DNA of 64,000 bases from Mesoterricola silvestris. GTDB taxonomy: Bacteria > Acidobacteriota > Holophagae > Holophagales > Holophagaceae. Location of the stretch: the NCBI RefSeq assembly GCF_030295405.1, contig NZ_AP027080.1, positions 992,001 through 1,056,000 of the forward strand. The letters run 5' to 3'. Position numbers and translations under genes: made by a program. Under the pieces are notes generated by a model. It was not told where the DNA came from and made no database searches. It saw only the letters and a program-made list of their open reading frames with translations. This document shows, piece by piece, positions 43,324-63,348 of this stretch. The stretch's first letter is position 1. Each line of letters opens with the position of its first letter.

Positions 43324-44318
43324 GTGGGGCGCGCGCGTTTCTGGATGGTGTGCGCCGCGGCCCTGGCCGCGTCCCTCCTGCTGCAGCTGGCCGTGGACGG
43401 GGGCGTGCTCCCGGACCTGCTCAATCCCTACTACCTGCACCTGCTGACGGTCATCGGCATGAACATCATCCTGGTGGCCAGCCTGAACCTGCTCAACGGC
43501 TACCTGGGGGAGTTCGCCCTGGGGCACGCGGGGTTCATGGCGGTGGGGGCCTACACCGCGGCGCTGCTGGCCACGAAGGTGCTGCCCCCGGCCGCGGACC
43601 TGCCGCCGGTGGTGGGGCCCTTCTGCGTCCTGGTGGTGACCCTGGGCGGCGCCATGGCCGCCGCGGCCCTGGTGGGGTGGCTGGTGGGCCTGCTCACCTT
43701 CAAGACCGTGGGGGACTACCTGGCCATCATCACGCTGGGCTTCAACATGATCATCGTCAACGCCATCCAGAACCTCGATTTCGTGGGCGGGCCCCGGGGC
43801 TTCACGGGGATCCCGAAGAACACCACCTTCTTCGCGGTGGCGGTGTGCGCGGTGCTCACCCTGGCGATCCTGCGCAACCTCATCCAGTCCAGCTTCGGCC
43901 GGGTGTGGGTGTCCATCCGGGAGAACGCCATCGCCGCCGAGCTCATGGGCGTGGCCGTGAACCGCGCCAAGAACATGGCCTTCACGGTGGCCGCGGCCTT
44001 CGCGGGCCTGGCCGGGGGCCTCTGGGCGCAGAACCAGCAGTTCATCACTCCCCGCAGCTTCGATTACATCAAGACCACCGAGATCCTCGTGATGCTCTAC
44101 CTGGGCGGCATGGCGAGCCTTTCCGGGTCCATCCTGGGGGTGGTGGCCTACACGGTCCTCATGGAGGTGCTGCGCAACCTCCTCAGCGCCTTCGCGCCCC
44201 AGCTGGCGGAATGGCGGATGCTCATCAGCCCCCTGATCCTCATCCTCATCATGCTCACCCGGCGCTACGGGCTCATGGGGAACCGGGAGTGGTCCTGGCT
44301 GCGCCCGGGGCGCTCCGC

Positions 44319-44322
<4 letters not shown>
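43324..44322 (+). CDS. livM: branched-chain amino-acid-type ABC permease LivM
   Basis: 332 residues from GTG 43324, one base after the livH stop. LivM signatures are GMNIILVASLNLLNGYLGEF, ALGHAGFMAVGAYTAALL and the loop WVSIRENAIAAELMGVAVNR. About nine to ten hydrophobic helices. It pairs with LivH to form the channel. The stop overlaps livG by 4 bp. Confidence 0.93.
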
Positions 44323-45082
<760 letters not shown>

Positions 45083-45086
<4 letters not shown>

Positions 45087-45793
45087 CCTGCATCGAGGTG
45101 GAGAACCTGCACGTGGCCTACGGCTCCATCCGGGCCCTGCACGGCATCGACCTGGTCATCCAGGAGGGGGAGATCGTTTCGCTGCTGGGCGCCAACGGGG
45201 CCGGCAAATCCACCACCCTCCGGGCCCTTTCCCGCATGATCCCCTTCCGCGAGGGGGATATCCGCTTCCGGGGCCGCAGCGTGCGGGACCTGCCCGCCCA
45301 CCGCCTGGTGGCCCTGGGCATGGCCCACGTGCCCGAGGGCCGAGGCATCTTCCCCAGCCTCACCGTGCGGGAGAACCTCGCCCTGGGGGCCTGGACCCAG
45401 AAGGACGGCGCCCGGGTGCGCCAGGCCTACGACCAGGTCTTCGGCATCTTCCCGCGCCTGGCCGAGCGCCTTTCCCAGCAGGGCGGCACCCTCTCCGGCG
45501 GCGAGCAGCAGATGCTGGCCGTGGGCCGCGCCCTCATGACAGGCTGCCGCCTGATGCTCCTGGACGAGCCGTCCATGGGCCTGTCCCCCCTCCTGGTGAA
45601 GGAGGTCTTCAAGGCCCTGCAGGCCATCAACGCCCAGGGCACGACGATCCTCCTGGTGGAGCAGAACGCCCACATGGCCCTGAAGATCGCCCACCGGGGA
45701 TATGTCCTGGAAAACGGGCGCCTGGTGCTGGAGGGCGCCGCGGAGGATCTGGCGAAGGATCCGCGGGTGAAGGAGGCCTACCTGGGGGGGTAG
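45083..45793 (+). CDS. livF: ABC transporter ATP-binding protein LivF
   Basis: 236 residues. Walker A GANGAGKST, the LivF hallmark HVPEGRGIFPSLTVRENL, signature LSGGEQQMLAVGRAL, Walker B LMLLDEPSMGLSP and VEQNAHMAL. Last gene of the liv operon; after its stop the base composition falls toward the low-GC island at 45.9 kb. Confidence 0.94.
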
Positions 45794-48374: not shown

Positions 48375-48620
48375 GCGGATCCCCGTTCATCCCATCGATC
48401 GGCGTTCATCCCGGTTTCCGCAGGGCTGGCGCAGAGGTGGGTCGGAGCGCATGTTACTCGATGTCCTTGACCCAAAGGTTGCGACAAATCCCAGCGAAGC
48501 TCAAACGGGGATAAACAGGATCCAGGGGAAAAGGCAGGATGAAGAACGTCTGGTCCAAGGTGGAGCCAGACCACCGAGAACAACCTTGCGATTCATGACC
48601 TAGGGATTGCCGACACACCC
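48358..48620. repeat. ~263-bp repeat, left copy flanking the glycan locus
   Basis: It aligns with the reverse complement of 63324-63586 at roughly 35 differences in 263 positions. The longest identical run is the ~40-bp stretch TCAAACGGGGATAAACAGG... at 48501-48540. The outer half (TTCATCCC, TTTCCGCAGGGCTG, GTCGGAGCGC) resembles the intergenic elements at 29.2 and 38.1 kb. It ends at the GH1 stop codon and also covers the 3' end of the gene at 47838. Confidence 0.93.
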
Positions 48621-49960
48621 TACCCCAGGACCTGGCCGTTGGAGCGCACCACCTCCGACAGGAAGCGCGCGCTGGCCTTGGGGGTGCGCTTGAGGGTTTC
48701 GTAGTCCACGTGGACGATGCCGAAGCGCTTGGCGTAGCCCAGGGCCCATTCGAAATTGTCCAGCAGGGACCAGGCGGAGTAGCCGCGCACGTCGGCGCCC
48801 CGGGCCATGGCGCTGAGCACGGCCTGGAGGTGGGTGCGGAAATACTCAACCCGGAGGGGGTCCCGCACGCCGCCGGGGGGGGCGGTGGCGGGGTCCGGGA
48901 AGGCGGCGCCGTTCTCGTTGACGTAGACCGGAATGGGGCCGTAGCGGTCCTGGAGCCACAGGAGGGTCTCGGTCAGGCCTTCGGGGTACACCTCCCAGTC
49001 CATGTCGGTGCGCAGGTGGCTGGGGTGGGGGACGCTGGACCACTGGCCGAAGGGGACGGCGGGGTCGTGGCGGGTGATGCCCCGGCTGTAGTAGTTGAGG
49101 CCCAGGTAGTCGATGGGTTCCTGGATGGTCCTGAAGTCGGCCTCGGGGAACGCGGGCCAGGCCTCCCCGAAGAGCGCGGGGAACTCCTCCGGGTAGCGCC
49201 CGAAGAAGACGGGGTCCAGGTAGTGCCGGTTCATGTAGGCGTCGGCCCGGGCCGCGGCGGCGACGTCGGCGGGGCGGTCCGTGGCGGGGTGCTTGGGCTC
49301 GATGTTCACCACCAGGCCCACGGTGCGCGCGCCGGCGGCGCGGCAGGCCTGGACACCCAGGCCGTGGGCGAGGAGGAGATTGTGGGAGACCCGGGGGAGT
49401 TCCCGGAAATCCCGGTGGCCGGGGGGGTGGGAGCCCTGGAGGTGGCCCTCGTGCATGACGACCCAGGGCTCGTTGAGGGTGGACCACATCTCCACCCGGT
49501 CCGAAAGGGCCGAGGCCACGGTGTGGGCGTAGTCGGCGAAGCGGCCCGGGAGATCGGGGTCGAGCCAGCCGCCCCGGTCCTCCAGGGCGGCGGGGAGATC
49601 CCAGTGGAAGAGGGTGATCAGGGGCCGGATCCCGGCCTCCAGGAGGCCATCCACCAGCTTGGCGTAGAAATCGAGTCCGGCCGGGTTCACGGGGCCCCGC
49701 CCGCCGGGGAGGACCCGGCTCCAGGAGACGCTGAACCGGTAGGACTGGAAGCCCAGTTCCTTCATCAGCGCGATATCCTCCCGCCAGCGGTGGTAGTGGT
49801 CGCAGGCCACGTCGCCGCCGGGGGCGAGGTGGGCGCCGGCCCCGCCGGGGCGGCAGAAGCGGTGCCAGTTGCTGGGCCCCGCGCCGTCGGCCAGGGGGGA
49901 CCCTTCGATCTGGTAGGCCGAGGTGGAGACGCCCCAGAGGAAATCCGGAGGGAAGGCCAT
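48620..49960 (-). CDS. GH1 beta-glucosidase
   Basis: Hydrolyses beta-glucosides; here probably short beta-1,2-gluco-oligosaccharides such as sophorose (inference from the locus). 446 residues, normal for GH1, no signal peptide, so cytosolic. FLWGVSTSAYQIEG is the N-terminal signature; E164 in TLNEPW is the acid/base and E349 in VNENG the nucleophile; SAWSLLDNFEWALGY closes the sugar site. Last gene of the minus-strand operon, 2 bp after GH94. Its stop codon touches the left repeat. Confidence 0.95.
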   Translation of the reverse strand: MAFPPDFLWGVSTSAYQIEGSPLADGAGPSNWHRFCRPGGAGAHLAPGGDVACDHYHRWREDIALMKELGFQSYRFSVSWSRVLPGGRGPVNPAGLDFYAKLVDGLLEAGIRPLITLFHWDLPAALEDRGGWLDPDLPGRFADYAHTVASALSDRVEMWSTLNEPWVVMHEGHLQGSHPPGHRDFRELPRVSHNLLLAHGLGVQACRAAGARTVGLVVNIEPKHPATDRPADVAAAARADAYMNRHYLDPVFFGRYPEEFPALFGEAWPAFPEADFRTIQEPIDYLGLNYYSRGITRHDPAVPFGQWSSVPHPSHLRTDMDWEVYPEGLTETLLWLQDRYGPIPVYVNENGAAFPDPATAPPGGVRDPLRVEYFRTHLQAVLSAMARGADVRGYSAWSLLDNFEWALGYAKRFGIVHVDYETLKRTPKASARFLSEVVRSNGQVLG

Positions 49961-49962
49961 GG

Positions 49963-52900
49963 TCAGGCCCCCAGCCGGATGACGACCGTGGTGTCCCGGT
50001 CCAGGGGCACCCGGATATCCGGGTCCGCCGGGTGGTCGTGGCCGTCGATGAGGGCCGCCACGGCACCCGGAGGCAGCCCCGGATCCCGCACCAGGGTGAT
50101 GTCGCACCGGCCCCGTCCCTGGGGGTCGCGGTAGCGGATGCGGGCCCGGTCCCAGGACGGGGGGAGCCCGGGGCTCAGGCGGATGGCGCCGCCCTCCAGG
50201 CGAAAGCCCAGCACGTCCTCCACCGCCACGCGGTACATCCACCCGGCGGAACCGGTGTACCAGGTCCAGCCGCCGCGCCCGGTGTGGGGGGCGACGCCGT
50301 AGACGTCGGCGGCCACCACGTAGGGTTCGGTCTGGTAGGTGGCGGGATCCTTGCCGTGGGACACCGGGCTCAGCATGGCCAGGAGGTCCGCGGCGCGGCC
50401 CCTGCGGCCCGCCTGGGCCACGGCCTTCACGGCCCAAAGGGCGCCGTGGGTGTACTGGCCGCCGTTCTCCCGCACCCCGGGGATGTAGCCCATGATGTAG
50501 CCGGGATCGTTGGGGAACGTGTCGAAGGCGGGGGTCAGGAGCCGGATCATGCCGGCGCCTTCGTCCACCAGCTGGGCCTCCATGGCTTCCAGGGCCCGTT
50601 CCGCCCGGGCGGCGGGCACGGCGCCGGAGAGGGTGGCCCAGGCCTGGGCCAGGCAATCGATGCGGCATTCGGGATTCTGGGCGGAGCCCAGGGGCGTGCC
50701 GTCGTCGAAGTAGGCCCGGCGGTACCATTCGCCGTCCCAGCCGGCCGCCTCCAGCGCCGCGGACAGGGTGCCCATGCGCTCGCTGAAGCGCGTGGCCCGG
50801 GCCAGGTCCCCCCGGCGGGCGCACACGGGCCCGAAGGCATCGAGGATGGTGTAAAGGAAGAAGGCCATCCACACGCTCTCGCCCTTGCCCTCGCGGCCCA
50901 CGCGGTTCATGCCGTCGTTCCAGTCGCCCGTGCCCATCAGGGGCAGGTCGTGGACGCCGGTGCGGCTCAGGGCCAGGTCCAGGGCCCGGCAGCAGTGCTC
51001 GTAGAGATCGCCCCGGGTGCCCGAATCCGCGGGCGCCAGGTAGGCCTCGTCCTCCCCCGGCGCCAGGGCCCTGGCCTGGAGGTAGGGGGCGGTTTCCGAA
51101 AGGATGGCCCAGTCGCCGGTGCTGCGCAGGTAGTGGGCGGTGATGAAGGGCAGCCACAGGAGGTCGTCGGAGAAGCGGGTGCGGATGCCCTGCTCGATGG
51201 GGGGGTGCCACCAGTGCAGCACGTCGCCTTCCACGAACTGGTGGGCGGCGTGCAGGAGGATCTGGGACCGGGTGAGGCCGGGCAGCAGGTACAGGAGCCC
51301 CGCGGCGTCCTGCAACTGGTCGCGGAACCCGAAGGCGCCCCCGGACTGGTAGTAGGCGGTGCGGCCCCACATGCGGCAGGCGAGGTTCTGGTAGGGGAGC
51401 CAGCCGTTGACCATGAGATCGATGGCCGGTTCGGGGGTTTCCACCTGGAGGCCCGAAAGGGTGCGGTCCCAGTGGGCCCGCACCTCGGCCAGGGCCGGGG
51501 CGGCGTCGCGGATCCGGGCCAGGCGCCGCGCCTCCCCGGCGTCCGCGGCCTCGCCGGACACCAGCACGCAGGTGCGGGTCTCCCCGGGCTCCAGGACCAG
51601 GTCCAACTGGAAGGCGAAGCAGGGGTCCGCCATGGTGCCGGCGGCCCCGTCCAGGGCTCCGGCGGTGGTGACGGCGGCGGGGGCCTCGGGGCGGCCCGGG
51701 CGGCCCAGGAAGGCGCCCCGGTCCGTGGTGGCGGCCACGGCGCCTTCGGCGGCGGCGAAGGCCACCAGGCCCTGGAAGGGGCCGGGGGCGGTGTTCCAGG
51801 CGAGGACGGTATCCCCCTCGATGCGGGTCTCCAGCGGCGCCCCGGGGGTCTCCGCCAGCACCAGGTGCGCGTGCCAGAACAGCGTCAGGCGGCGCCCGCG
51901 GGGGCCGCGGTTGGTCAGGCGCACCGTCATGAATTTCTTGGGCGCGCGCAGCGCCGCGAACACCTGGACCTCCTGCTCCAGGCCGTCCACGGAGCTCTCC
52001 CAGCGGGTCGTGCCGAAGCCGTGGCGCACCGTGAAGGCCAGGCCCTCGCCGCTGGGGCCCGGCATGGGCGACCAGAATTCGCGGCTGTCCTCGTCCCGGA
52101 GGTGGAGCGTCTCGGGCAGCGGATCGGCGATGGGGTCGTTGTGCCAGGGGGTGATGCGGTGGAGGCGGCTGTTGGCGTTCCAGGTGCAGCTGATGCCCCG
52201 CTCCGTGGTGATGAGGCCGAAGGTTTCGTTGGCAAGGACATTGGACCAGGGCATGGGGGGGAGGACGGGGTGGCCGCCGGCTCCCGGCCGGACGTGGATG
52301 ATGTATTCCTTGCCATCCGGGGAAAAGCCGCCCAGGCCGTTGTCCAGGATCGTGGGGGCCTGGGCCGCGGGGGTGGGACGCGGGGCCCGGGGAATGAAGG
52401 CCGGGCGGGGGGCGGCCACCGGCGCCAGGGGGGCCGGGCCGCTGCCGGGGAAGGCGGCGTCCACGGCCGCGGCGGTGGCCAGGCCCGCGCACAGGGCCAG
52501 GGCCTCCGCGCGTTCCGCGGCGTAGCCCAGGCCCAGGGCCAGGGTGGCGCTGGCGCCGGGCTCCAGTTCCAGGACGCAGCGCAGGGCCAGCAGGGGATCC
52601 AGGACGGAACCCGCGGAGCCCGAGAGGGGGCCCGGAGCCAGGAGGGCGGCGGGGGCCGCCAGGGTGCGGCCCCGGCCCAGGAACAGGGCGCGGTCCGATT
52701 CGAAGGAGAGGCCGCCCACGGGGCCCGAGGCCAGCCAGTGGAACATCCACCGGGGCTTTTCGTCGGCCCCCCGGGGCCGGCGGCGGGCCAGCAGGGCCCG
52801 GGCCCCGGGTACCCACTCCGTCTGCACGAAGAGCTTGGAGAAACCCGGATGGGCCAAGTCGGCGTCGCGGGTGTTGAGCACGGCCTCCAGGCAGGAGGTC

Positions 52901-53286
52901 ACTTCGATGCGCCGGGGCGCGGCCCCGTGGTTCGTGAGGGTGAGCCTGCGCAGTTCCGCGTCCTGGCCGGGCAGGACCACCACCTCCAGGGTCGTGTCCA
53001 GGGTGCCGTCACGCCGGGTGAGGGTCCCCTGGCGCCCGGTGAAGGCGCTGCCCGCGGCTTCGGGGGGGACGGGCACCGGCTGGAGCCCGGCGGACCACAC
53101 CCTGCCGCCGTCCATGTCCCTCAGGTAGATGAAGAAGCCGTCGCCATCCTCAACCCGGTCGCCCTTCCAGCGCGTGAGGGCCTGGTCCCCGCACACCGAG
53201 TATCCGGTTCCCCGCGGCGTGAGAAGGACCTGGTACCTGCCGTTGGAGAGAAGCTGCCCGCGATCCCCGTCTTGATTGCTGTCCAT
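49963..53286 (-). CDS. GH94 phosphorylase, probably 1,2-beta-oligoglucan phosphorylase
   Basis: Phosphorolyses beta-glucan chains to alpha-glucose 1-phosphate. 1,107 residues from ATG 53286; GTG 53295 is in frame, and AGGA lies awkwardly for both. Two large beta-sandwich parts precede the (alpha/alpha)6 barrel with DWNDGMNRVG (788-797, the GH94 catalytic Asp). Phosphate-site blocks GGQYTHGALW and GRGGWTWYTGSAGWMYR follow. Cellobiose phosphorylases are ~800 residues; the ~1,100-residue length is that of the 1,2-beta-oligoglucan phosphorylase group, and a GH144 enzyme is nearby. No signal peptide: cytosolic. Confidence 0.88.
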   Translation of the reverse strand: MDSNQDGDRGQLLSNGRYQVLLTPRGTGYSVCGDQALTRWKGDRVEDGDGFFIYLRDMDGGRVWSAGLQPVPVPPEAAGSAFTGRQGTLTRRDGTLDTTLEVVVLPGQDAELRRLTLTNHGAAPRRIEVTSCLEAVLNTRDADLAHPGFSKLFVQTEWVPGARALLARRRPRGADEKPRWMFHWLASGPVGGLSFESDRALFLGRGRTLAAPAALLAPGPLSGSAGSVLDPLLALRCVLELEPGASATLALGLGYAAERAEALALCAGLATAAAVDAAFPGSGPAPLAPVAAPRPAFIPRAPRPTPAAQAPTILDNGLGGFSPDGKEYIIHVRPGAGGHPVLPPMPWSNVLANETFGLITTERGISCTWNANSRLHRITPWHNDPIADPLPETLHLRDEDSREFWSPMPGPSGEGLAFTVRHGFGTTRWESSVDGLEQEVQVFAALRAPKKFMTVRLTNRGPRGRRLTLFWHAHLVLAETPGAPLETRIEGDTVLAWNTAPGPFQGLVAFAAAEGAVAATTDRGAFLGRPGRPEAPAAVTTAGALDGAAGTMADPCFAFQLDLVLEPGETRTCVLVSGEAADAGEARRLARIRDAAPALAEVRAHWDRTLSGLQVETPEPAIDLMVNGWLPYQNLACRMWGRTAYYQSGGAFGFRDQLQDAAGLLYLLPGLTRSQILLHAAHQFVEGDVLHWWHPPIEQGIRTRFSDDLLWLPFITAHYLRSTGDWAILSETAPYLQARALAPGEDEAYLAPADSGTRGDLYEHCCRALDLALSRTGVHDLPLMGTGDWNDGMNRVGREGKGESVWMAFFLYTILDAFGPVCARRGDLARATRFSERMGTLSAALEAAGWDGEWYRRAYFDDGTPLGSAQNPECRIDCLAQAWATLSGAVPAARAERALEAMEAQLVDEGAGMIRLLTPAFDTFPNDPGYIMGYIPGVRENGGQYTHGALWAVKAVAQAGRRGRAADLLAMLSPVSHGKDPATYQTEPYVVAADVYGVAPHTGRGGWTWYTGSAGWMYRVAVEDVLGFRLEGGAIRLSPGLPPSWDRARIRYRDPQGRGRCDITLVRDPGLPPGAVAALIDGHDHPADPDIRVPLDRDTTVVIRLGA

Positions 53287-53302
53287 AGACTGCACGTTCC
53301 TT

Positions 53303-56242
53303 TCATGGCTCCATCACCACTGTGGCGGGAATCCGCCGCAGCGTCAGTTCCGTTCCCGTGGATCCTTCCACGATCCTGCCGTCCACCCGGGCCCGGCGGA
53401 AGGCGCCTGGGAGGGGCCAGCGCACCACGACGCCGCCCCGGGGGCAGGGCGCCGTGCCGGTGATCTCCACCACCACGCGCCCGGCTTCGGTGCGGGCCGA
53501 GAAGCCCAGTTCCCCGCCGGGGACCCGCAGGCCTTCCAGGCGCACGCCCTTGGCGAGCCAGGTGGCCGGAACCCCCGCCCCCAGCACCAGCGCGTCCCCG
53601 CGCTCCCGCACCAGGAGGCTCAGGAGGGAGCGGATGTAGTCCGACCCCACCCAGGCGTGGGGGAGGTCCCCCAGGAAGACGGGGCTGCGCGGGTCGCGCT
53701 GCACCACCTCCGGCCACTGGTTCCAGGCCAGGGGGCGCCGGTCCTCGAGGTAGGCGCCCAGCAGTTCCTGGGCCCGGTCCACCCAGCCCAGCTGGGCGAA
53801 GGCGCCGATGGTGCGGGTTTCGTACGGCGTGTAGCGGTCCCCGGGGGCCCCGCCCTGGCGGCGCACCCGGAACTGCCGGTAGAACTCGGCGAAGGTGGCC
53901 TCCACCGCGGACCGGGGCAGGTTCCCCAGCTCGTCGCCGGGCATGAGGGCCACGGTGGTGGAGGTGGCGTCGAAGTCCCCCAGCTCCGCGCACCCGGGGA
54001 TGTAGTCCACCCGGTGGGCGGCCATGGTGGCCTGGATGGAGGCCAGGAGGCTCCCCCGGAACCGGGTCTCCAGGGCCGCGAAATGCGCGGCGCCCGCGGA
54101 ATCCCCCAGTTCGCCGCAGATCCAGGCCGCGTCCCGGAAGCCCCGCAGGCTCCAGAAATCGTCCCAGTAGCTGTGCATGGGCTTGGCGGAATAGCCTTCG
54201 TGGCTGATGGAGGCCGGCACCAGGCCGTTCTTCTCCAGGATGCCCTCCAGGTAGTCCGCGGCGCGCCGGCCCTGGGGCCAGAGGCGGGCCAGGAAGGCCC
54301 GGTCCCCGGTGCACCGGGCGTACTCGGCCAGCAGGTGGAGGAATTCCCCGGGGCTGTCGTTCTCCGGCACGGGGTCGGCGCCCCGGTCATCCACCACGCA
54401 GGGCACCTTCCCGTTGGGGTAGAGGTAGGGGGCGTACCATTCGATGTAGTCCCTCACCTCGTCGGCGTGGCCCATGCGCAGGAGGGCGGCGGACATCATG
54501 GCGCCGTCGCGGATCCAGGACCTCGCGTAGGAGCGGGTCCCGGGCCGGAGGGCGGGGCCCTTGCGGCTGATGAGGATGTGGGCGAGGCAGGTGCGGAGGG
54601 TGTCGGCGGCCCCCGGTTCGGGCAGCTCCACCCGCACGCGGTTCAGCTTCTCGTCCCAGGAGGCGACGGCCTCCCGCAGATCGGCCTCGAAGGGGGGGCG
54701 GGGGCCGGCCCCCAGCAGGGGCAGGTCCACGAGGATGTCGCGCACCTCGCCCGGGGCCAGGTCCACGTCGTAGCGCAGGGCGCCGGAGGCGTGGCCGGCG
54801 GGGTCCGTGGCGGTGGCCGCGGGGGGCAGGGCGCCCCGGTGGAGGTAGTCCACGATGGATCCGCCGTGGAAGCCAACGGCGCCGGCCCCGTCGGGGCGGG
54901 TGGCGGAGCGCAGCAGGACCTTGCCGTCCACGGTGGCGGAATCGCCGCCGAAGGCCAGGGTGCCGATGGCGGCGGCGCCGCCCGGGGTGCCCAGGAACTG
55001 CACCGGCGGGTTCACCTGGAAGGGGCGCACCGCCAGGAACAGGGTGCCCTTCCAGGGGCTGGCGGAGGAGAGGCGGTAGCGGGCCCGGATCACCGGGGCC
55101 GCGGGGGAGCCCGCCCCGAAGGCCGTGACGCGCAGGGTCAGGTCGCCGTGGGTGCGGGTGACGGTGGGGATGGGCAGGGCGCCCCGCTCCAGGGACTGGG
55201 CGCACGCCGCCTGGGCCCAGCCGAGGAGCTGGCCGCCGCTCCACAGGAAGGGCTCCACGGAGGGGCCGCCGACGCCGGCCTCCAGGGCGCCGTCCTCGGA
55301 CAGGAGCGCGGAATCCAGGCCGCCGTCCACGCCCACCAGGGTCCAGTAGGGCTGCTCGCCCAGGTAGCACCGGGGGTAGTCGCCCCGGGGGGCCTCCCGG
55401 GCGAGGGTCTCGAAGGCCGCGTTCCAGGATTCGCCGAAGGCCAGGGGCCGCACGGCCAGGGCCTTCGCCGCGCCGCCCTCCACCCGCAGGAACCGGGCCT
55501 CGGTTTCGGGAAGGAGCAGATGGCTCGCGGGGCCCGCTGCGCCGCGCACCTCGCGCAGCGGGGTCCAGGCGGAGCCGTCCGGGGATACCAGGACCCGGAA
55601 GTCCCGGGGGCCCGGGTCGGCCCAGTCGATTCGCAGGCCGCCGAACTCCCGGGGGATCCGGAAGTCCAGCTGGCTCCAGCCGGGGCCGGAGGTGGCCGCG
55701 GGGGTGCGGTCGTAGGGGACCTCCACCGGGAGCTCGCGGATGGCCAGGTCGCGGAACTCCACGCGGCCCTTGCCCCCCGATCCGGCGGTGACGCACCATT
55801 CCACCGACGCGATGCGGGTGGGGTCCGCGCCGCCGGGGCCCCAGGCGAAGGACACCTGGCGCTTCTTCAGGGTCACCCGCGTCCATTCCCGGGGGAAGGC
55901 GAAGGCGGGCTTGCGCACCCACCAGACGTTCTCCCCGGAGGGGTCCACCAGCTTGAACTCCAGGTTCTCCGGGGGGCAGTCCCCGCGCACCAGGAAGGTG
56001 ATCTCGTAGTTGGGGGGCAGGGTGAGGGGCAGGTCCCGGCGCGCGGCGGCGTAGCCGCCCCGGCCCTGGAAATCGAAATCCATGCGCAGGCTGCCGGCGC
56101 CGCCCAGGGCCAGGAGCACGCCGTCGGAAGGCACGGCCTTCCAGGCCCGGACGGTCTCGAACCCGTCCAGGATCCGAGGCGGCGCGGCCAGGGCCGCCCC
56201 GGCCGCCAGGGCCAGGAGGAGTCCGCGCATGGGCCCCCTCAT
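53303..56242 (-). CDS. large exported (alpha/alpha)6-type glycoside hydrolase-like protein, family unassigned
   Basis: 979 residues. Signal peptide LLLALAAGAALA. Residues ~22-165 form a CBM-like beta-sandwich (DFQGRGGYAAARRDLPLTLP) and ~180-285 a discoidin-like module (FRVLVSPDGSAWTPLREV, EARFLRVEG). A beta-rich domain and then helices with SYARSWIRDGAMMSAALLRM, PENDSPGEFLHLLAEYA, GCAELGDFDATSTTVALMPG and LPHAWVGSDYIRSLLSLLV follow, the pattern of an (alpha/alpha)6 barrel as in GH15/GH63/GH94-like enzymes. Acidic residues in WIRDG, PENDSPGE and ELGDFD are catalytic candidates. I cannot place it in a numbered family. It overlaps GH144 by 4 bp and precedes GH94 by 16 bp, so it acts on the same glycan, in the periplasm or outside. 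Confidence 0.8.
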   Translation of the reverse strand: MRGPMRGLLLALAAGAALAAPPRILDGFETVRAWKAVPSDGVLLALGGAGSLRMDFDFQGRGGYAAARRDLPLTLPPNYEITFLVRGDCPPENLEFKLVDPSGENVWWVRKPAFAFPREWTRVTLKKRQVSFAWGPGGADPTRIASVEWCVTAGSGGKGRVEFRDLAIRELPVEVPYDRTPAATSGPGWSQLDFRIPREFGGLRIDWADPGPRDFRVLVSPDGSAWTPLREVRGAAGPASHLLLPETEARFLRVEGGAAKALAVRPLAFGESWNAAFETLAREAPRGDYPRCYLGEQPYWTLVGVDGGLDSALLSEDGALEAGVGGPSVEPFLWSGGQLLGWAQAACAQSLERGALPIPTVTRTHGDLTLRVTAFGAGSPAAPVIRARYRLSSASPWKGTLFLAVRPFQVNPPVQFLGTPGGAAAIGTLAFGGDSATVDGKVLLRSATRPDGAGAVGFHGGSIVDYLHRGALPPAATATDPAGHASGALRYDVDLAPGEVRDILVDLPLLGAGPRPPFEADLREAVASWDEKLNRVRVELPEPGAADTLRTCLAHILISRKGPALRPGTRSYARSWIRDGAMMSAALLRMGHADEVRDYIEWYAPYLYPNGKVPCVVDDRGADPVPENDSPGEFLHLLAEYARCTGDRAFLARLWPQGRRAADYLEGILEKNGLVPASISHEGYSAKPMHSYWDDFWSLRGFRDAAWICGELGDSAGAAHFAALETRFRGSLLASIQATMAAHRVDYIPGCAELGDFDATSTTVALMPGDELGNLPRSAVEATFAEFYRQFRVRRQGGAPGDRYTPYETRTIGAFAQLGWVDRAQELLGAYLEDRRPLAWNQWPEVVQRDPRSPVFLGDLPHAWVGSDYIRSLLSLLVRERGDALVLGAGVPATWLAKGVRLEGLRVPGGELGFSARTEAGRVVVEITGTAPCPRGGVVVRWPLPGAFRRARVDGRIVEGSTGTELTLRRIPATVVMEP

Positions 56243-57675
56243 GGCTTTTTCGCCGCGGGGGTGTCGAGCCAGCCGCCCTTGAACCCGGCCCGGACCATGC
56301 CGCGCCGGAGGGTGGGATCGTTCCGCAGGAGGCGCCACACTAGGCCCGAGCGGTAGTTCTCCACCATGCCCAGGATCAGGCCCTGGTCGATGCCCAGGTA
56401 GTCGGTGTCCACCCAGCCCAGGCCCTTGATGGTGCGGCCGTGGTGGGCGGGGGCGCCCTCGGGGAAGGTCTCGTTGAAGGCGTCCAGGAAGCCGTATTTG
56501 GAGAAGAGGTTGTCCCCGAAGCGCCGCCGCATCTCCTTCAGGGCGGGCAGGGACACCTCCGGGGTGAAGGGCAGGGAGCCCGCGGCCGCGTTGGGGGTGA
56601 TGGTGCCGTCGTCCAGGATGCCGTTGGCGGCGGCCCCCCGGGCGGCGTAGGTGAGGAAGGTGCGCCGGACGCCGTCCACCTGGAGCACGGCGTCGCTGGG
56701 GCCGTCGCAGGCGGAGATGCCCCAGATATTGGGACCGTAGCCCTTCCAGTTTCCGGGATTGGCCTGGGCGTAGGCGCGCTGGGATAGGGTGGCGCGCCGG
56801 GTCTCCTCGGCGTAGTCGATGCCCAGGGCGGCCGTGGCGGCGTCGCGCACGCCGCGGAAGTCCACCCACACGTGGGAGAACTGGTGTCCGAAGAGCGGCC
56901 CGAACTGGTAGCAGGCCTGCCCCTGGAAGGTGGCCCACGCCTGGGACTTCGTGTACTCGGGCCAGGCCGCCGCGGGGATGGCGTGGGTGGGGGAGCCCAG
57001 GGCCAGGAATTCCAGGAGCATGGCCTCCATGTACCCGTGCCAGTCGTAGGTGTTGAAGCCCTCCTCGGGGGTCCAGCCCATGCTCACGCGGTTGGCCCGG
57101 GGCATGGCCCAGGTCCACTCCACTCGCTCGTTGAGGCGGGAGGCGATGGCGCGGATCTCGGCCTCGGCGGGGCGGTCGAAGTAGGCCTGGCAGGTGAGGG
57201 CCCCCGCGATGAGCAGGGCGGTGTCGATGGTGGAGAGCTCGACGTTCTTGAACCGGAGGCCGGTCTTCATGTCGAGGAAATGGTAGTAGAAGCCGTGGTG
57301 GCCCGTGGCGTTGACGGGGTCCGGGCCCTGGGGGGCCCGGTCCAGGAAGCGCAGGGTGAGGAGCACCCGCTGAGCGGCCTGCTCCCGGGTGACGTAGCCG
57401 CGCTCGGCGCCGATGACGTAGGCGGTGAGCCCGAATCCCACCGCCGAGATGCTGGCGAAGGAGGGGCTGGGATGGCGGTCCGGGATGAGGCCCGTCCCCG
57501 GATCCGCCGTGTCCCAGAAGAACTGGAACGTCCGCTGTTCCAGCAGTTCGATGAATGCCTGGTCCGAGAGCTCCGGCACGGGTTGGGCGGGCGGGGCGCC
57601 GCCGCAGGCGGTGGAAACCGCCAGCAGCAGCGACAGGCCTACGGACGCCTTGTTAAAAAATGTAAACGTTCCCAT
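56239..57675 (-). CDS. GH144-type endo-beta-1,2-glucanase lipoprotein
   Basis: 478 residues. The lipoprotein signal ends LAVSTAC, so the enzyme is lipid-anchored. The body is the Glycoamylase (PF10091) fold of GH144: FFWDTADPGTGLIPDR, GFYYHFLDMKTGLRF, ELSTIDTALLIAGAL, GYMEAMLLEFLALGSPTH and FGHQFSHVWVDFRG appear in order. Characterised GH144 members cut beta-1,2-glucan to sophorose or short oligomers; other PF10091 proteins are uncharacterised, so activity is inferred. It is 19 bp after the TonB-dependent transporter. A LacI-type TGTAAACGTT sequence overlaps its first codons. Confidence 0.85.
   Translation of the reverse strand: MGTFTFFNKASVGLSLLLAVSTACGGAPPAQPVPELSDQAFIELLEQRTFQFFWDTADPGTGLIPDRHPSPSFASISAVGFGLTAYVIGAERGYVTREQAAQRVLLTLRFLDRAPQGPDPVNATGHHGFYYHFLDMKTGLRFKNVELSTIDTALLIAGALTCQAYFDRPAEAEIRAIASRLNERVEWTWAMPRANRVSMGWTPEEGFNTYDWHGYMEAMLLEFLALGSPTHAIPAAAWPEYTKSQAWATFQGQACYQFGPLFGHQFSHVWVDFRGVRDAATAALGIDYAEETRRATLSQRAYAQANPGNWKGYGPNIWGISACDGPSDAVLQVDGVRRTFLTYAARGAAANGILDDGTITPNAAAGSLPFTPEVSLPALKEMRRRFGDNLFSKYGFLDAFNETFPEGAPAHHGRTIKGLGWVDTDYLGIDQGLILGMVENYRSGLVWRLLRNDPTLRRGMVRAGFKGGWLDTPAAKKP
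57661..57674. promoter_or_regulatory. LacI-type operator-like sequence inside the GH144 start
   Basis: TGTAAACGTTCCCA shares TGTAAACGTT with the complement of the operator at 61707. It covers the second to fifth codons of the GH144 gene, so it could be a roadblock site or chance. Confidence 0.35.
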
Positions 57676-57694: not shown

Positions 57695-60547
57695 TCAGAA
57701 CTGGAACGTGGCGCCGAACTGGATGCGGCGGCCCACCATGGCGTCCACGGGCTGGCCGAACTTCGCGGCCGCGCCGGCGGACCCGTCAATGTAGCCCGAA
57801 TCCCATCCGTAGATCCAGTTGTGGTAGTTGAAGGCGTTGAGGGCTTCCACGTTCAGGCCCAGCCTGCTCTTGCCGATGCGGAAGTCCTTCTGGAGCTTCA
57901 GGTCCACCGAGCGGTAGCCCCAGGCGTTGGGGATGATGAAGCTGTACTTCTGGGGCCGGCCGGCGTTGTAGTGGAAGTGGCGCTGGTTGTAGCCCCACCC
58001 GTTGGTCACGTCCCAGATGGTGTAGGGCAGGCCGGAGGAGAGGGTGATGAGGCCGCTCAGGCGGAAGCCGTAGGGCAGGCTCACCATGCCGTCCATGACC
58101 AGGCGGTTGCGCTCGTCGTCGGCCGTGGGGTGCTTGCCGTAGGCGTCGGCGTTGACGAAGTCCAGGCTGAAGAGATCGTTCCCGGTCTGCTTGGCGCTGG
58201 AGAGGGTGTAGTGGATGCCGGCGCCCCAGCCCGAGGCCTCGGTGTAGGGCTTCTCCACGACCACGTACATCGCGTCGTACCAGGTCTTCTTGGTGTCGCT
58301 GAGCAGCACGTTGGAATAGCCGGGGACGGAGATGTAGTTCAGCTGCGCGTCGCGGTTGCCCCACTTCCAGGTGATGGCGTCGAAGCTGCGCACGTCCGTG
58401 AAGGTGATCGAGGCGTTGACGCTGCCCACCTTCGTGCGCATGCCCAGGCTGATCTGGTCGGAGTGGGCGGGCTTGGCGTTGTTGTCCAGGAGGAAGACCT
58501 CGGGATTGGGGGCCACGCCCTGGGCGATGAGGCCGTTCAGGCCGTCCTTGGACATGTAGCTGGGATCCCACTTGATGGCGGGGGTGCCGTTCACGGGCGA
58601 GCCGTCCTTGGAGAACGTGAAGGTGCGCACGGCGTACTGCAGGCGGAAGCGCTCGTCGAGCACGTTGTTGAAGGACTCCCGGTCGTAGTAGCGGCCCACG
58701 CCGCCGAACACGACCGCCGTGCCGTCGCCCTTGACGTCATAGGAGAAGCCCAGGCGCGGCTGGAAGGCGCCGTAGTAGGGCTTGCGCTTGGTGCCGTCGG
58801 TGAAGTACTTGGAGTCGTACATCCCGCCCAGGGCCGTCACCACGGACTTCGGGGTGACGTAGTCGTCGTTGAACATGTCGGACTCGTAGTCCCAGCGCAG
58901 GCCGATATTGACCAGGAGGCGGGGGGTGACGTTCCAGTCGTCCTGGGCGTACCACCCGATCTGGCGGTTCGTGGCGCTCAGGTCGGGGTTGCCGACGCCG
59001 TACTGGGCCTGGAAGGGGATCGTGAGGGTGGGGTCGAGATTGGGGTCGAAGTTGAAGACGGGGTTGCCCAGCTGGTACTTCTTGATCCCGTAGTCCATGA
59101 AGTCGATGTTGCCGCCGAACTTGAAGCTGTGGTTGGCCACGGCGACGTAGGAGAAGTCGTCGCGCAGGGAGATGCGCTTCTGGACGAAGTCCTGCTGATC
59201 GGTGTGGCCGCCGGTGATCAGGATGCCGTAGTAGTTCTTGGCGACGAGATCGGGGTTGATGGCCTTGGGATTCCACTCGGACTTCTGGTAGGTGATCATG
59301 AATTCGTTCACCCAGCTGGAGGTGGTGAACTTGTCCTTCAGGCTGGTGGTGAGGACGCTGTTGGACATGTCCGAACCGTTCTCGTACGTGGTCTGGCCGC
59401 CGAAGTCCCGCTTCTCGTGCTCGGAGCGGTAGTTGAAGGAGTACTCCAGGATGTGGGCGGGGTTGAGCTGGTAGTCCACCTTGCCGAACACCAGGTTGGA
59501 GCGGAAGGGGGAGGCGTAGTTCCCGGCGTAGCTCTTGAGCTGGTTCACCAGGGCCGCGGAGGCGCCGCTGAGGTTGCCGCCGCCCAGGTAGACCTGGTTG
59601 TCGCGGTTCTGCTGGTTGCCTTCATAGGACAGGAAGAAGTGCATCTTGTCCTTGAGGATGGGGCCGCCGACGCTGAACCCCTCCTGGGTGCGGGAGTACT
59701 CGGGCTTGGGCTGGCCGCGCTTCTCGGCGAAGTAGTTGTTCGAGACCAGGTCCTTGTTCTGGTAGTACACGAAGAGGTCGCCGTGGAAGTCGTTGGTGCC
59801 GGACTTGGTGACGGCGCTGATGACGGCGCCCGAGGCCTTCTGGTACTCGGCCTTGTAGTTCTCCGTCATCACGCGGAATTCCTGCACGGCGCCCAGGGGG
59901 AAGGGGTTCCCGCGGCTGCTGTCCTGGCCGACGGTGCCGCCGGAAAGGACATCGCTCTTGTAGCTCGCGCCGTCGATGAAGATGTTGACGCGCTGGTTGG
60001 TCTGGCCTCCGGAGGAGAAGGACTGGTTCAACTCGTCGTTGGAGAGCTTGATGCCGGGGGCCAGGGCGGCGTAGTTCAGGAAGTTGCGGTTGCCCTGGGG
60101 AAGGCCCTCGAGCTGCTCGAGGCTGATGTTGGTGGCCACTTCGGCGGAACGGAGCTCGGTGAGGGAACCCGTGACCTCCACCACCGCGGCGGCCTGGGGG
60201 GCCAGGTTGAAGTCCAGATCCAGGGCCTGGCCCACCTGCACCCGCACGGACTTCACGGCGGTGCCGCCGCCCGGGGCGGTGGCGGTGAGGGTGTAGGTGG
60301 CGGGGTCCAGCATGAGGTGGTAGGTGCCGTCGGCCTTGGCCACGGCCCGGGTGGTGAAGCCCTTGGCCTTGTCCACGGCCGTGACGGTGGCGCCGCCCAC
60401 GGCCTTGCCGCCCATGAGGACGTGGCCGCGCAGGATGGCGGTGGTGGTCTGGGCCATCAGACAGGGGGCTGTGCCCATGGCGATGAGGGCCGCCGCGAAG
60501 GCGGGGATAGAGGCTCCGCTGACCCTGGCTCGGAGGGTTCGGCTCAT
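57695..60547 (-). CDS. Oar-like TonB-dependent outer-membrane transporter
   Basis: 950 residues. Signal peptide to about CLMAQ, then a carboxypeptidase-regulatory (CarbopepD_reg) domain (AILRGHVLMGGKAVGGATV, GTYHLMLDPATYTLTATAPG). The plug has NIFIDGASYKSD and GAVQEFRVMTENYKAEYQKA, and GTNDFHGDLFVYYQNKDLVS opens a long barrel that ends RRIQFGATFQF. This Oar/Cna-B style transporter is the usual form in Acidobacteriota. It has no SusD partner here. Operon position between lacI and GH144 points to uptake of beta-1,2-glucan fragments. Confidence 0.92.
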   Translation of the reverse strand: MSRTLRARVSGASIPAFAAALIAMGTAPCLMAQTTTAILRGHVLMGGKAVGGATVTAVDKAKGFTTRAVAKADGTYHLMLDPATYTLTATAPGGGTAVKSVRVQVGQALDLDFNLAPQAAAVVEVTGSLTELRSAEVATNISLEQLEGLPQGNRNFLNYAALAPGIKLSNDELNQSFSSGGQTNQRVNIFIDGASYKSDVLSGGTVGQDSSRGNPFPLGAVQEFRVMTENYKAEYQKASGAVISAVTKSGTNDFHGDLFVYYQNKDLVSNNYFAEKRGQPKPEYSRTQEGFSVGGPILKDKMHFFLSYEGNQQNRDNQVYLGGGNLSGASAALVNQLKSYAGNYASPFRSNLVFGKVDYQLNPAHILEYSFNYRSEHEKRDFGGQTTYENGSDMSNSVLTTSLKDKFTTSSWVNEFMITYQKSEWNPKAINPDLVAKNYYGILITGGHTDQQDFVQKRISLRDDFSYVAVANHSFKFGGNIDFMDYGIKKYQLGNPVFNFDPNLDPTLTIPFQAQYGVGNPDLSATNRQIGWYAQDDWNVTPRLLVNIGLRWDYESDMFNDDYVTPKSVVTALGGMYDSKYFTDGTKRKPYYGAFQPRLGFSYDVKGDGTAVVFGGVGRYYDRESFNNVLDERFRLQYAVRTFTFSKDGSPVNGTPAIKWDPSYMSKDGLNGLIAQGVAPNPEVFLLDNNAKPAHSDQISLGMRTKVGSVNASITFTDVRSFDAITWKWGNRDAQLNYISVPGYSNVLLSDTKKTWYDAMYVVVEKPYTEASGWGAGIHYTLSSAKQTGNDLFSLDFVNADAYGKHPTADDERNRLVMDGMVSLPYGFRLSGLITLSSGLPYTIWDVTNGWGYNQRHFHYNAGRPQKYSFIIPNAWGYRSVDLKLQKDFRIGKSRLGLNVEALNAFNYHNWIYGWDSGYIDGSAGAAAKFGQPVDAMVGRRIQFGATFQF

Positions 60548-61742: not shown

Positions 61743-61917
61743 ACCCCTGACCTTGAAACCTGCAAGAAGAAAGTAACGACCCTGTAACGAAACGAAAATG
61801 GTTGCAGGACGCCCACGAACGCAGCTCGCAGCCTGGCAAAAAGCGGCATGACCCTTGGATATCCGGGGCTGGATGCCGGTTTTTGCTCCCCGCCGCCGCC
61901 TCCCGTCAGGATCCCCC

Positions 61918-63348
61918 ATGGCCAGCCACCCCCACCACACGACCCTCGCCGCGGACCGGGTTCCCGTCCGGCAGAAGATCGCCTACGGGCTGGGGGCGAT
62001 CGTCACCATCGTGGCCGTGAATTCCGTGGTGCAGCTCACGAGCCTCGTGTACGTCGTGGGGCTGGGCATCAGCGCCATCTGGATCGGGTACGCCCAGGCC
62101 ATTCCGCGCCTGTGGGACGCGCTGGTGGACCCCATCCTGGGCAACCTTTCGGACAACAGCCGCTCCCGCTTCGGCCGGCGCATCCCCTTCCTGGTGGTCG
62201 GCGGCATCCTCCTGGGCGTGGCCTTCACGCTCCTGTGGACGGTGCCCAGGGACTGGAGCCGGCCGGCGATGTTCGCGTACTTCATCGCAACGTCGCTGTT
62301 CTTCTACACCGTCGTGCCCATCTATTCCATCCCCCACGGGGCGCTGGGCCTGGAGATGACCGAGGACTACCACGAGAAGACCAGCATCTTCGCCTACGCC
62401 AGTTTCATCGGCAACGTGGGGGCCTTCTTCCTGCCCTGGGTGTACTACCTGGCCAACCGGCCCGTGTTCCACGGGGACACGGTGGCGGGCATCAAGTGGG
62501 TGTGCCTGGGCATGAGCTTCTTCCTCACCGGCTCCGCCCTGGTGTGCGCCCTCGTGTGCAAGGAGGGCAAGCTCCACCAGGCCCGCAAGCAGGAGCACAT
62601 CCCCATCCTCAAGGGCTTCCGGGCCACCTACCGCAACGGCGCCTTCCTGAAGCTGGTGGCGGCCTTCACGCTGCTGATCGTGGGGTTCCAGGTGGTGATG
62701 GGCTTCAGCAACTTCACGACGATCTTCTACCTCTACGGGGGCGACAAGGACGCCGCCAGCAGCCTCATGGCCCAGAACGGCACCCTCTGGGCCGCGGTGG
62801 GCATCGCCGGCGTGTTCCCCATGCTCTGGCTCTCCAGGCACCTGGGGAAGAAGGGCACCGTGATCCTCAGCTTCGCGGTCATCGCCGGCGGCAACCTGCT
62901 CAAGCTGGTGTGCTACAACCGCGCCTGGCCCAGGCTCACGTTCATCCCCACCATCTGCCTCTCCCTGGGGATGGTGTTCTGCTTCTCCCTGGTGAACTCC
63001 ATGATCTCGGACATCTGCGACGAGGAGGAGGCGCGGGTGGGCACCCGCCAGGAAGGCGTCTATTTCGCCGTCTACAACTGGTGGTGGAAGGTGGGCGTCT
63101 CCATCGCCTCGGTGGTGGGAGGCTACCTGCTGCGGTGGACGGGCTTCCTGGAGGGCATGGGCACCCAGACGGCTTCCACGATGTTCTGGGTCCGGTTCTG
63201 GGAGATCGGCCTGCCCACGGCGCTGTGCGTGGCGGGCATCCTCCTGCTCGCGGCCTACCCGCTGACGGAGGAGTCGGCTTATGCGACGAAGGCCCTGCTG
63301 GCGGAGCGCAAAGAAGCGGACTCGGGTGTGTCGGCAACCCCTAGGTAA
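61918..63348 (+). CDS. GPH-family (MelB-like) sugar:cation symporter
   Basis: 476 residues from ATG 61918, with AGGA 6 nt upstream; an in-frame ATG at 61855 is less likely. Twelve hydrophobic helices. GPH signatures are GYAQAIPRLWDALVDPILGN, LSDNSRSRFGRRIPFLVVGG, IPHGALGLEMTEDYHEKTSI and MISDICDEEEARVGTRQEGV. It probably carries glucan oligosaccharides released in the periplasm to the cytosolic GH94 and GH1. The last ~9 codons (SGVSATPR) run into the right repeat. Confidence 0.92.
   Translation: MASHPHHTTLAADRVPVRQKIAYGLGAIVTIVAVNSVVQLTSLVYVVGLGISAIWIGYAQAIPRLWDALVDPILGNLSDNSRSRFGRRIPFLVVGGILLGVAFTLLWTVPRDWSRPAMFAYFIATSLFFYTVVPIYSIPHGALGLEMTEDYHEKTSIFAYASFIGNVGAFFLPWVYYLANRPVFHGDTVAGIKWVCLGMSFFLTGSALVCALVCKEGKLHQARKQEHIPILKGFRATYRNGAFLKLVAAFTLLIVGFQVVMGFSNFTTIFYLYGGDKDAASSLMAQNGTLWAAVGIAGVFPMLWLSRHLGKKGTVILSFAVIAGGNLLKLVCYNRAWPRLTFIPTICLSLGMVFCFSLVNSMISDICDEEEARVGTRQEGVYFAVYNWWWKVGVSIASVVGGYLLRWTGFLEGMGTQTASTMFWVRFWEIGLPTALCVAGILLLAAYPLTEESAYATKALLAERKEADSGVSATPR

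What the first reader, a model, noticed from the sequence alone, without database searches (positions are those of the whole stretch)
53303..56242. Possible new glycoside hydrolase family: exported CBM/discoidin/(alpha/alpha)6 protein
The 979-residue protein has two carbohydrate-binding-like modules and a C-terminal helical domain with conserved-looking acidic motifs (WIRDG, PENDSPGE, ELGDFDATST). It sits translationally coupled between GH144 and GH94, yet I cannot place it in a known family. It could remove chain ends or side groups that block beta-1,2-glucan.
Basis: partly seen in the sequence, partly recalled or inferred. Interest (0 to 1): 0.7.

Follow-up and report, generated by a model that had tools for sequence, protein, structure and literature searches.

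The report
GH15-like partner of bacterial β-1,2-glucanase
The gene encodes an exported sugar-cutting enzyme of an undescribed, widespread family whose active site looks like that of α-glucosidases, yet it almost always sits beside a β-1,2-glucan-degrading enzyme, so it may cut the odd α-bond that the rest of that pathway cannot.

Summary
Window 53303-56242, minus strand, encodes a 979-residue exported protein with an ATGA overlap to an upstream GH144 gene and lying just before GH94 and GH1 genes. Its modules are a CBM11-like domain, a discoidin/CBM32-like domain, a β-supersandwich, an (α/α)6 barrel and a C-terminal β domain (AlphaFold pLDDT 90.9). The family is real: 432 relatives, conserved full-length across many phyla. 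It is tightly tied to GH144: 46 of 47 loci with full flanks carry GH144 nearby, and the genomes holding it have GH144 in three samples (6/6, 7/7, 107/107). In Xanthomonas it shares the operon of a near-identical homologue of the characterised β-1,2-glucanase XCC2207. No curated GH threshold is passed, but profile comparison places the barrel near GH15 (95% against about 1% for GH94), and both GH15 catalytic glutamates and key subsite -1 residues are invariant (Y572, R578, D579, E682, E845). Best reading: an uncharacterised GH15-like exo-α-glucosidase of β-1,2-glucan utilisation, perhaps acting on the α-1,6 bond of α-1,6-cyclised β-1,2-glucans. α-specificity and substrate are inferred; inverting versus retaining cannot be told from sequence. 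CAZy models were not available.

The parts
53303..56242 (-). target gene, 979-aa exported GH15-like multidomain protein
   Evidence: AlphaFold model
56186..56242 (-). signal peptide (residues 1-19)
   Evidence: read from sequence; AF2 helix 5-14; lipoprotein-type N-termini in some orthologues (e.g. L081, L051)
55727..56185 (-). CBM11-like beta-sandwich (residues ~20-172), invariant W107 and W134, W108 nearly so
   Evidence: CBM11 6r3m Z 17.9, rmsd 3.8, 154 aligned; PF03425/PF02018 in some members
55439..55717 (-). discoidin / CBM32-like module (residues ~176-268)
   Evidence: PF00754 in 28 of 28 members
54698..55375 (-). beta-supersandwich domain (residues ~290-515) of GH15/GH65/GH94 type
   Evidence: alignments to 9ju0, 1lf6, 1ug9 start at residue ~296-299
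53573..54631 (-). [quoted passage not shown]
54506..54511 (-). R578-D579 of WIRDG, equivalent to GH15 subsite -1 Arg-Asp (O4/O6 binding)
   Evidence: DDase Arg542/Asp543 in PMC12446779
54197..54199 (-). E682, predicted general acid (alpha5-alpha6 loop; pLDDT is low here)
   Evidence: aligns with the GH15 'WE' acid in 16 of 16 sequences and with DDase Glu671; invariant in all members examined
53708..53710 (-). E845, predicted general base or nucleophile (alpha11-alpha12 loop)
   Evidence: aligns with the GH15 base Glu in 16 of 16 sequences; invariant
56239..57675 (-). GH144 endo-beta-1,2-glucanase homologue (ORF open to 57789 with TTG; likely ATG at 57675)
   Evidence: PF10091; XcSGL/XCC2207 8xul, E 5.8e-148
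49963..53295 (-). [quoted passage not shown]
   Evidence: 8rf0, E 1.4e-243
48620..49960 (-). GH1 beta-glucosidase
   Evidence: (TIGR03356)
57695..60547 (-). TonB-dependent outer-membrane transporter type beta-barrel
   Evidence: PF25183, PF13620
60607..61839 (-). LacI-family regulator
61855..63348 (+). MFS_2 sugar transporter, divergent; seems to replace the ABC importer found in most other clusters
   Evidence: compare

Best explanation
The protein represents an uncharacterised GH15-like family that works in beta-1,2-glucan utilisation. Shown by computation: a conserved exported protein, tightly linked to GH144, with GH15-type fold, the two GH15 catalytic glutamates (E682 acid, E845 base or nucleophile) and GH15 subsite -1 residues for a terminal D-glucose. 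Inferred: it binds glucan chains through its CBM11/CBM32-like modules and acts from the non-reducing end as an exo-alpha-glucosidase, cutting an alpha-linked glucosyl bond that GH144, GH94 and GH1 cannot. The most plausible known bond of this kind is the single alpha-1,6 link of alpha-1,6-cyclised beta-1,2-glucans (made by Xanthomonas, Ralstonia and Cereibacter), exposed after GH144 opens the ring and the ends are trimmed. The products would then enter by the TonB-type and inner-membrane sugar transporters and be finished by GH94 and GH1.
For: Family and conservation. Linkage: 46 of 47 full-flank loci have GH144, median gap 3.1 kb. Target and GH144 occur in the same 6 of 93 genomes of the class, in 7 of 7 orthologue-bearing genomes of a phylum sample where 51 of 247 have PF10091, and in 107 of 107 in Xanthomonadaceae where 115 of 198 have it. 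In many other clusters the operon also carries an ABC binding protein related to the sophorooligosaccharide-binding Lin1841 (E 4.6e-62). In Xanthomonas the cluster carries a GH144 nearly identical to XCC2207, which is specific for beta-1,2-glucan (PMC12102758). Xanthomonas makes the alpha-1,6-cyclised glucan (PMC11228985, PMC11842490). GH15 affinity: TIGR01577 hits 30 of 30 members; hhalign 95.2%, E 2.5e-8, against 1.1% GH94, 0.4% GH144, 0.1% GH1; top fold match dextran dextrinase 9ju0 (Z 29.4, rmsd 3.8, 539 aligned; tied within 1 Z with GH65 7fe3). Active site: Y572, W576, R578, D579, E682, E845 match GH15 in 16 of 16 sequences, and E682 aligns with the mutationally confirmed acid Glu671 of DDase. 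The host class lacks OpgG/D, so scavenging of foreign glucan is likely.
Against: No biochemical evidence. Alpha-specificity rests on family resemblance: the same fold serves beta-linkages in GH94. The loop holding E682 is modelled with low confidence (pLDDT ~41). Co-occurrence counts are not corrected for phylogeny. Many GH144 carriers lack the target (44 of 51 in the phylum sample), so GH144 systems can do without it. The alpha-1,6-cyclised glucan idea rests on circumstance (producer group, missing activity) and needs exposure of the alpha-linked residue at a chain end.
Confidence: 0.42

Rival explanations
1. It is a beta-specific exo-hydrolase of beta-1,2-glucan or sophorooligosaccharides (glucose- or sophorose-releasing) that uses the GH15-like scaffold with the sugar bound for attack on an equatorial bond.
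For: Operon entirely devoted to beta-1,2-glucan. CBM11 is a beta-glucan-binding fold. GH94 shows that this architecture can handle beta-bonds; GH94 enzymes rank 4th and below in Foldseek.
Against: Sequence profile is far nearer to the alpha-specific GH15 than to GH94 (95% against 1%). The subsite -1 residues checked are GH15-type. GH144 and GH1/GH94 already cover beta-1,2 bonds.
Confidence: 0.3
2. It is a retaining transglucosidase like dextran dextrinase, moving alpha-glucosyl units rather than hydrolysing them.
For: Dextran dextrinase is the best solved match of the catalytic part in sequence and fold and shares the ENDS-G motif. Its authors state that inverting and retaining GH15 cannot be told apart by sequence (PMC12446779).
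Against: The residue before E845 is Pro or Ala; it is Pro in inverting KfIG and AgGD and Gly in DDase. A catabolic operon calls for a hydrolase. The N-terminal modules differ from the CBM35-like N1 domain of DDase.
Confidence: 0.1
3. It removes some other side group or acts on another glycan (for example beta-1,6 branches of osmoregulated glucans), the GH144 link reflecting co-regulation in a mixed-glycan locus.
For: Fold neighbours include GH78, GH65, GH116, GH63, GH125 within a few Z units. PF17389 (GH78 barrel) hits 25 of 30 members weakly.
Against: Near-perfect linkage to GH144 and no marker enzymes of another glycan seen in the core operon. The R-D pair implies a gluco-configured O4/O6 at subsite -1 (by analogy).
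Confidence: 0.13
4. It is an ordinary GH15 glucoamylase or dextran hydrolase that sits beside GH144 by chance.
For: GH15-like active site.
Against: Below the GH15 gathering score (13.1 against 22 bits); linkage to GH144 in 46 of 47 loci.
Confidence: 0.05

Closest known systems
Dextran dextrinase (Gluconobacter oxydans, GH15 homologue, PDB 9ju0)
   Same: beta-supersandwich plus (alpha/alpha)6 barrel; E682/E845 equivalent to Glu671/Glu858; Arg-Asp pair of subsite -1; ENDS-G motif; best fold and sequence match of the catalytic part in PDB
   Different: 12-13% identity; target has CBM11- and CBM32-like modules in place of the CBM35-like N1 and the C-terminal beta-helix; Pro/Ala not Gly before the second catalytic Glu; target has a signal peptide and is operonic with GH144
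GH15 isomaltose glucohydrolase (Kribbella flavida, 5z3a), glucodextranase (1ug9), bacterial glucoamylase (1lf6)
   Same: barrel fold (Z 27.9, 26.5, 27.0), catalytic pair positions, Pro before the base in KfIG and AgGD
   Different: target below the Pfam GH15 cut-off; extra N-terminal modules; different gene context
[quoted passage not shown]
   Same: overall supersandwich and barrel architecture
   Different: profile probability about 1%; two catalytic Glu in the target, whereas GH94 uses Asp and phosphate (own knowledge)
GH144 XcSGL (XCC2207) and its operon in Xanthomonas
   Same: same operon; an orthologue of the target lies beside a near-identical XcSGL
   Different: a different (alpha/alpha)6 family; hhalign 0.4%
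IaSGT gene cluster of Ignavibacterium album (GH35 beta-1,2-glucosyltransferase, PMC8861115)
   Same: GH144/GH94/ABC/TonB-type beta-1,2-glucan locus; target homologues occur in Ignavibacteria (L065, L067)
   Different: the passages of the paper read here do not mention a homologue of the target

Membership tests
GH15 | Pfam PF00723 gathering score (22 bits) | tested here: not met
   10.1 bits full protein, 13.1 bits barrel alone
GH15 | (alpha/alpha)6 barrel, with N-terminal beta-supersandwich in bacterial members | tested here: met
GH15 | catalytic Glu in alpha5-alpha6 loop and catalytic Glu in alpha11-alpha12 loop | tested here: met
   E682 and E845 align with both in 16 of 16 GH15 sequences; positions defined in PMC12446779; by sequence only, geometry not measured
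GH15 | subsite -1 Tyr, Trp and Arg-Asp | tested here: met
   Y572, W576, R578, D579
GH15 | profile-level homology over the whole barrel | tested here: met
   hhalign 95.2%, E 2.5e-8, 283 columns, against controls at 1.1%, 0.4%, 0.1%
GH15 | action on terminal alpha-glucosides | not testable with these tools
   needs enzyme assay
GH94 | PF17167 catalytic domain | tested here: not met
   no PF17167 hit for the target at E up to 1; hhalign 1.1%
GH144 / clan GH-S | PF10091 domain | tested here: not met
   no hit at E up to 1; hhalign 0.4%
GH133-type / GDE_C | PF06202 gathering score (21 bits) | tested here: not met
   12.5-14.9 bits
GH63, GH65, GH78, GH116, GH125 | family-level match of the barrel | tested here: inconclusive
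   folds align at Z 24-28.5; no hit of the window protein to their Pfam models, weak hits of other members
CAZy family models (dbCAN) | curated CAZy assignment | not testable with these tools
   no CAZy library held
CBM11 | CBM11 beta-sandwich fold | tested here: met
   Z 17.9, rmsd 3.8, 154 aligned
CBM11 | PF03425 match of the window protein | tested here: not met
   absent for the window member; 5 of 28 members at E up to 0.1
CBM32 / F5_F8_type_C | PF00754 gathering score (28.2 bits) | tested here: met
   31.1 bits on residues 20-272; 28.0 on the whole protein; 28 of 28 members hit

The most novel reading that the evidence does not exclude
A new CAZy family of GH15-like exo-alpha-glucosidases dedicated to alpha-1,6-cyclised beta-1,2-glucans, the missing enzyme for complete breakdown of this phytopathogen periplasmic glucan, present in about half of sampled Xanthomonadaceae species and in scavengers across many phyla.
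Probability: 0.22. Interest if true: 0.75.

Novelty: new variant of a known kind. Interest (0 to 1): 0.52.

Why it matters
β-1,2-glucans and their α-1,6-cyclised forms are factors in bacterial symbiosis and plant disease, and how they are degraded is only partly known. This protein is the most constant unexplained member of a widespread β-1,2-glucan operon, including that of Xanthomonas. A GH15-type, α-glucosidase-like active site inside a β-1,2-glucan pathway is an unexpected combination that makes a direct biochemical prediction with named residues.

Tried and rejected
Translating the plus strand at the given coordinates gives no gene. I first took D694 (W-D-D) as the general acid by analogy with GH63/GH37; the GH15 and dextran dextrinase alignments put the acid at E682 instead. 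I briefly thought the neighbour might be GH193; the paper shows XCC2207 is GH144. Distant homologues (L087, L096, L097; 22-24% identity) sit in uninformative contexts, and their genomes have no PF10091 match at the cut-offs used. About 35%-identical paralogues in Xanthomonadaceae lie near TonB, LacI or tryptophan-halogenase-like genes and gave no substrate clue. A search for OpgG/D in the host class found none, which argues against recycling of the host's own GH186-made glucan. Paper searches found no description of this family, though subscription papers are not covered and terms with commas cannot be searched. A search for the Xanthomonas citri binding protein found nothing on this operon. 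The hhalign alignment blurred the acid loop; the L-INS-i alignment resolved it. GH families absent from the fold list were not taken as excluded.

Full report
What is there. Window 53303-56242 on the minus strand encodes a 979-residue protein with a Sec-type signal peptide. The gene is the second of four tightly packed genes: GH144, target, GH94, GH1. GH144 and target share ATGA, the target-GH94 gap is 7 or 16 nt depending on the GH94 start, and GH94-GH1 is 2 nt. A TonB-type barrel and a LacI regulator lie upstream, and a divergent MFS sugar transporter beyond them. The GH144 protein is closest among solved structures to XcSGL (XCC2207), a GH144 enzyme specific for β-1,2-glucan (PMC12102758). 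The GH94 is closest to the phosphorylase part of cyclic β-1,2-glucan synthase.

Domains. AlphaFold with 52 homologues gave pLDDT 90.9 and pTM 0.91. The N-terminal region, folded alone (pLDDT 94.2), has a first module that matches CBM11 (Z 17.9, rmsd 3.8, 154 aligned). The next is a discoidin/CBM32 module (PF00754 in 28 of 28 members; profile E 6.9e-16 to chitosanase CBM32). Residues 296 onward match GH15, GH65, GH78, GH116 and related supersandwich-plus-barrel enzymes; dextran dextrinase 9ju0 leads (Z 29.4, rmsd 3.8, 539 aligned), but rows within 1 Z are tied.

Family. A scan of one genome per species found 432 relatives, and the best 80 are mostly full-length at 36-80% identity, in Acidobacteriota, Gemmatimonadota, Pseudomonadota, KSB1, Ignavibacteria, Bacteroidota, Eisenbacteria, Phycisphaerales and others. 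In 77 aligned sequences 131 columns are at least 95% conserved. The nearest relatives (80% identity) are Holophagaceae, so the window is most likely from that family.

Gene context. Of 47 loci with at least 7 kb on both sides, 46 carry GH144, 32 GH1, 33 a TonB-type gene, 29 LacI and 21 GH94; the median GH144-target gap is 3.1 kb. A common order is LacI, TonB, GH144, ABC binding protein, two permeases, target, GH1, GH94, with an ABC ATPase in some. The binding protein is related to Lin1841, the sophorooligosaccharide-binding protein of Listeria innocua (E 4.6e-62; PMC8861115). Co-occurrence: in the host's class the full or near-full target and PF10091 are in the same 6 of 93 genomes. In a phylum sample all 7 genomes with a true orthologue have PF10091 (51 of 247 do); two genomes with only a distant homologue do not. 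In Xanthomonadaceae 107 of 107 have it (115 of 198 do); two of these 107 hold only a ~35%-identical paralogue. Fisher p-values are 1.3e-9, 1.1e-5 and 4.9e-47, uncorrected for shared ancestry, so they are descriptive. In one Xanthomonas-like genome the GH144 is nearly identical to XCC2207 and the binding protein nearly identical to 3uor, with the target orthologue in the same operon.

Relation to GH15. No curated model claims the protein (PF00723 13.1 of 22 bits; TIGR01577 32.4 of 820.7 bits), but TIGR01577 (oligosaccharide amylase, which I take to be GH15-type) hits 30 of 30 members, best E 1.4e-16. Profile-profile comparison of the barrel gives 95.2% and E 2.5e-8 to 16 GH15 proteins of the same class, against 1.1% for GH94, 0.4% for GH144 and 0.1% for GH1. 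In a separate L-INS-i alignment the GH15 acid falls on E682, the base on E845, and Y572, W576, R578, D579 and D629 match in all 16. A HMMER alignment puts E682 on the acid of dextran dextrinase, which mutants confirm as Glu671 (PMC12446779). These residues are kept in paralogues and distant homologues (W576 becomes Phe in the paralogues). D756, D758 and E808 are kept mainly in closer members and may define substrate fit.

Mechanism. Known GH15 enzymes act on terminal α-glucosidic bonds, and one branch (dextran dextrinase) is a retaining transglucosidase with the same two glutamates; its authors state that sequence cannot tell the two. So an exo-α-glucosidase with catalytic pair E682/E845 is the most likely chemistry, inverting somewhat more likely than retaining because Pro or Ala precedes E845. 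What in a β-1,2-glucan pathway needs an α-glucosidase? The known α-bond is the single α-1,6 link of α-1,6-cyclised β-1,2-glucans from Xanthomonas, Ralstonia and Cereibacter (PMC11842490; PMC11228985). That step is inference. The host class has no OpgG/D, and the host genome has PF10091 only in this one GH144, so it most likely scavenges foreign glucan.

Limits. No CAZy library, no coordinates for distance measurement, low model confidence for residues 679-689 that hold E682, and no assay. The β-specific rival remains open because GH94 shows that this architecture can act on β-bonds.

Noticed in passing
L132, L133, L134 (Xanthomonadaceae; e.g. L133:7993-11094, L134:14529-17606): About 35%-identical paralogues of the target; the two aligned (L133, L134) keep the catalytic residues and L133 has a strong discoidin domain. 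In L132 and L134 they lie near tryptophan-halogenase-like genes; in L134 the paralogue lies in the same beta-1,2-glucan cluster.
   Followed up: partly
L087:1213-3456 (minus), L096:157-2946, L097:1384-4155 (minus): Distant homologues (22-24% identity) that keep R578, D579, E627, D629, E682, D694 and E845; they suggest a larger superfamily with other substrates. L087 sits beside a PHP-like phosphoesterase gene.
   Followed up: partly
window 61855-63348: In the window an MFS_2 sugar transporter stands where most other clusters have an ABC importer, an apparent transporter swap.
   Followed up: no
L005:4947-6239 and L138:8737-9960: The operon's binding protein is nearly identical in Xanthomonas to 3uor, deposited only as a sugar-binding protein; the context suggests its ligand may be sophorooligosaccharides.
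   Followed up: partly
window 43324-45793: Genes resembling branched-chain amino-acid ABC transporter parts (permease and two ATPases) lie in this stretch, unrelated to the finding.
   Followed up: no
window 48620-57118, both strands: Very long overlapping antisense open frames, expected from high GC content; most likely not genes.
   Followed up: no
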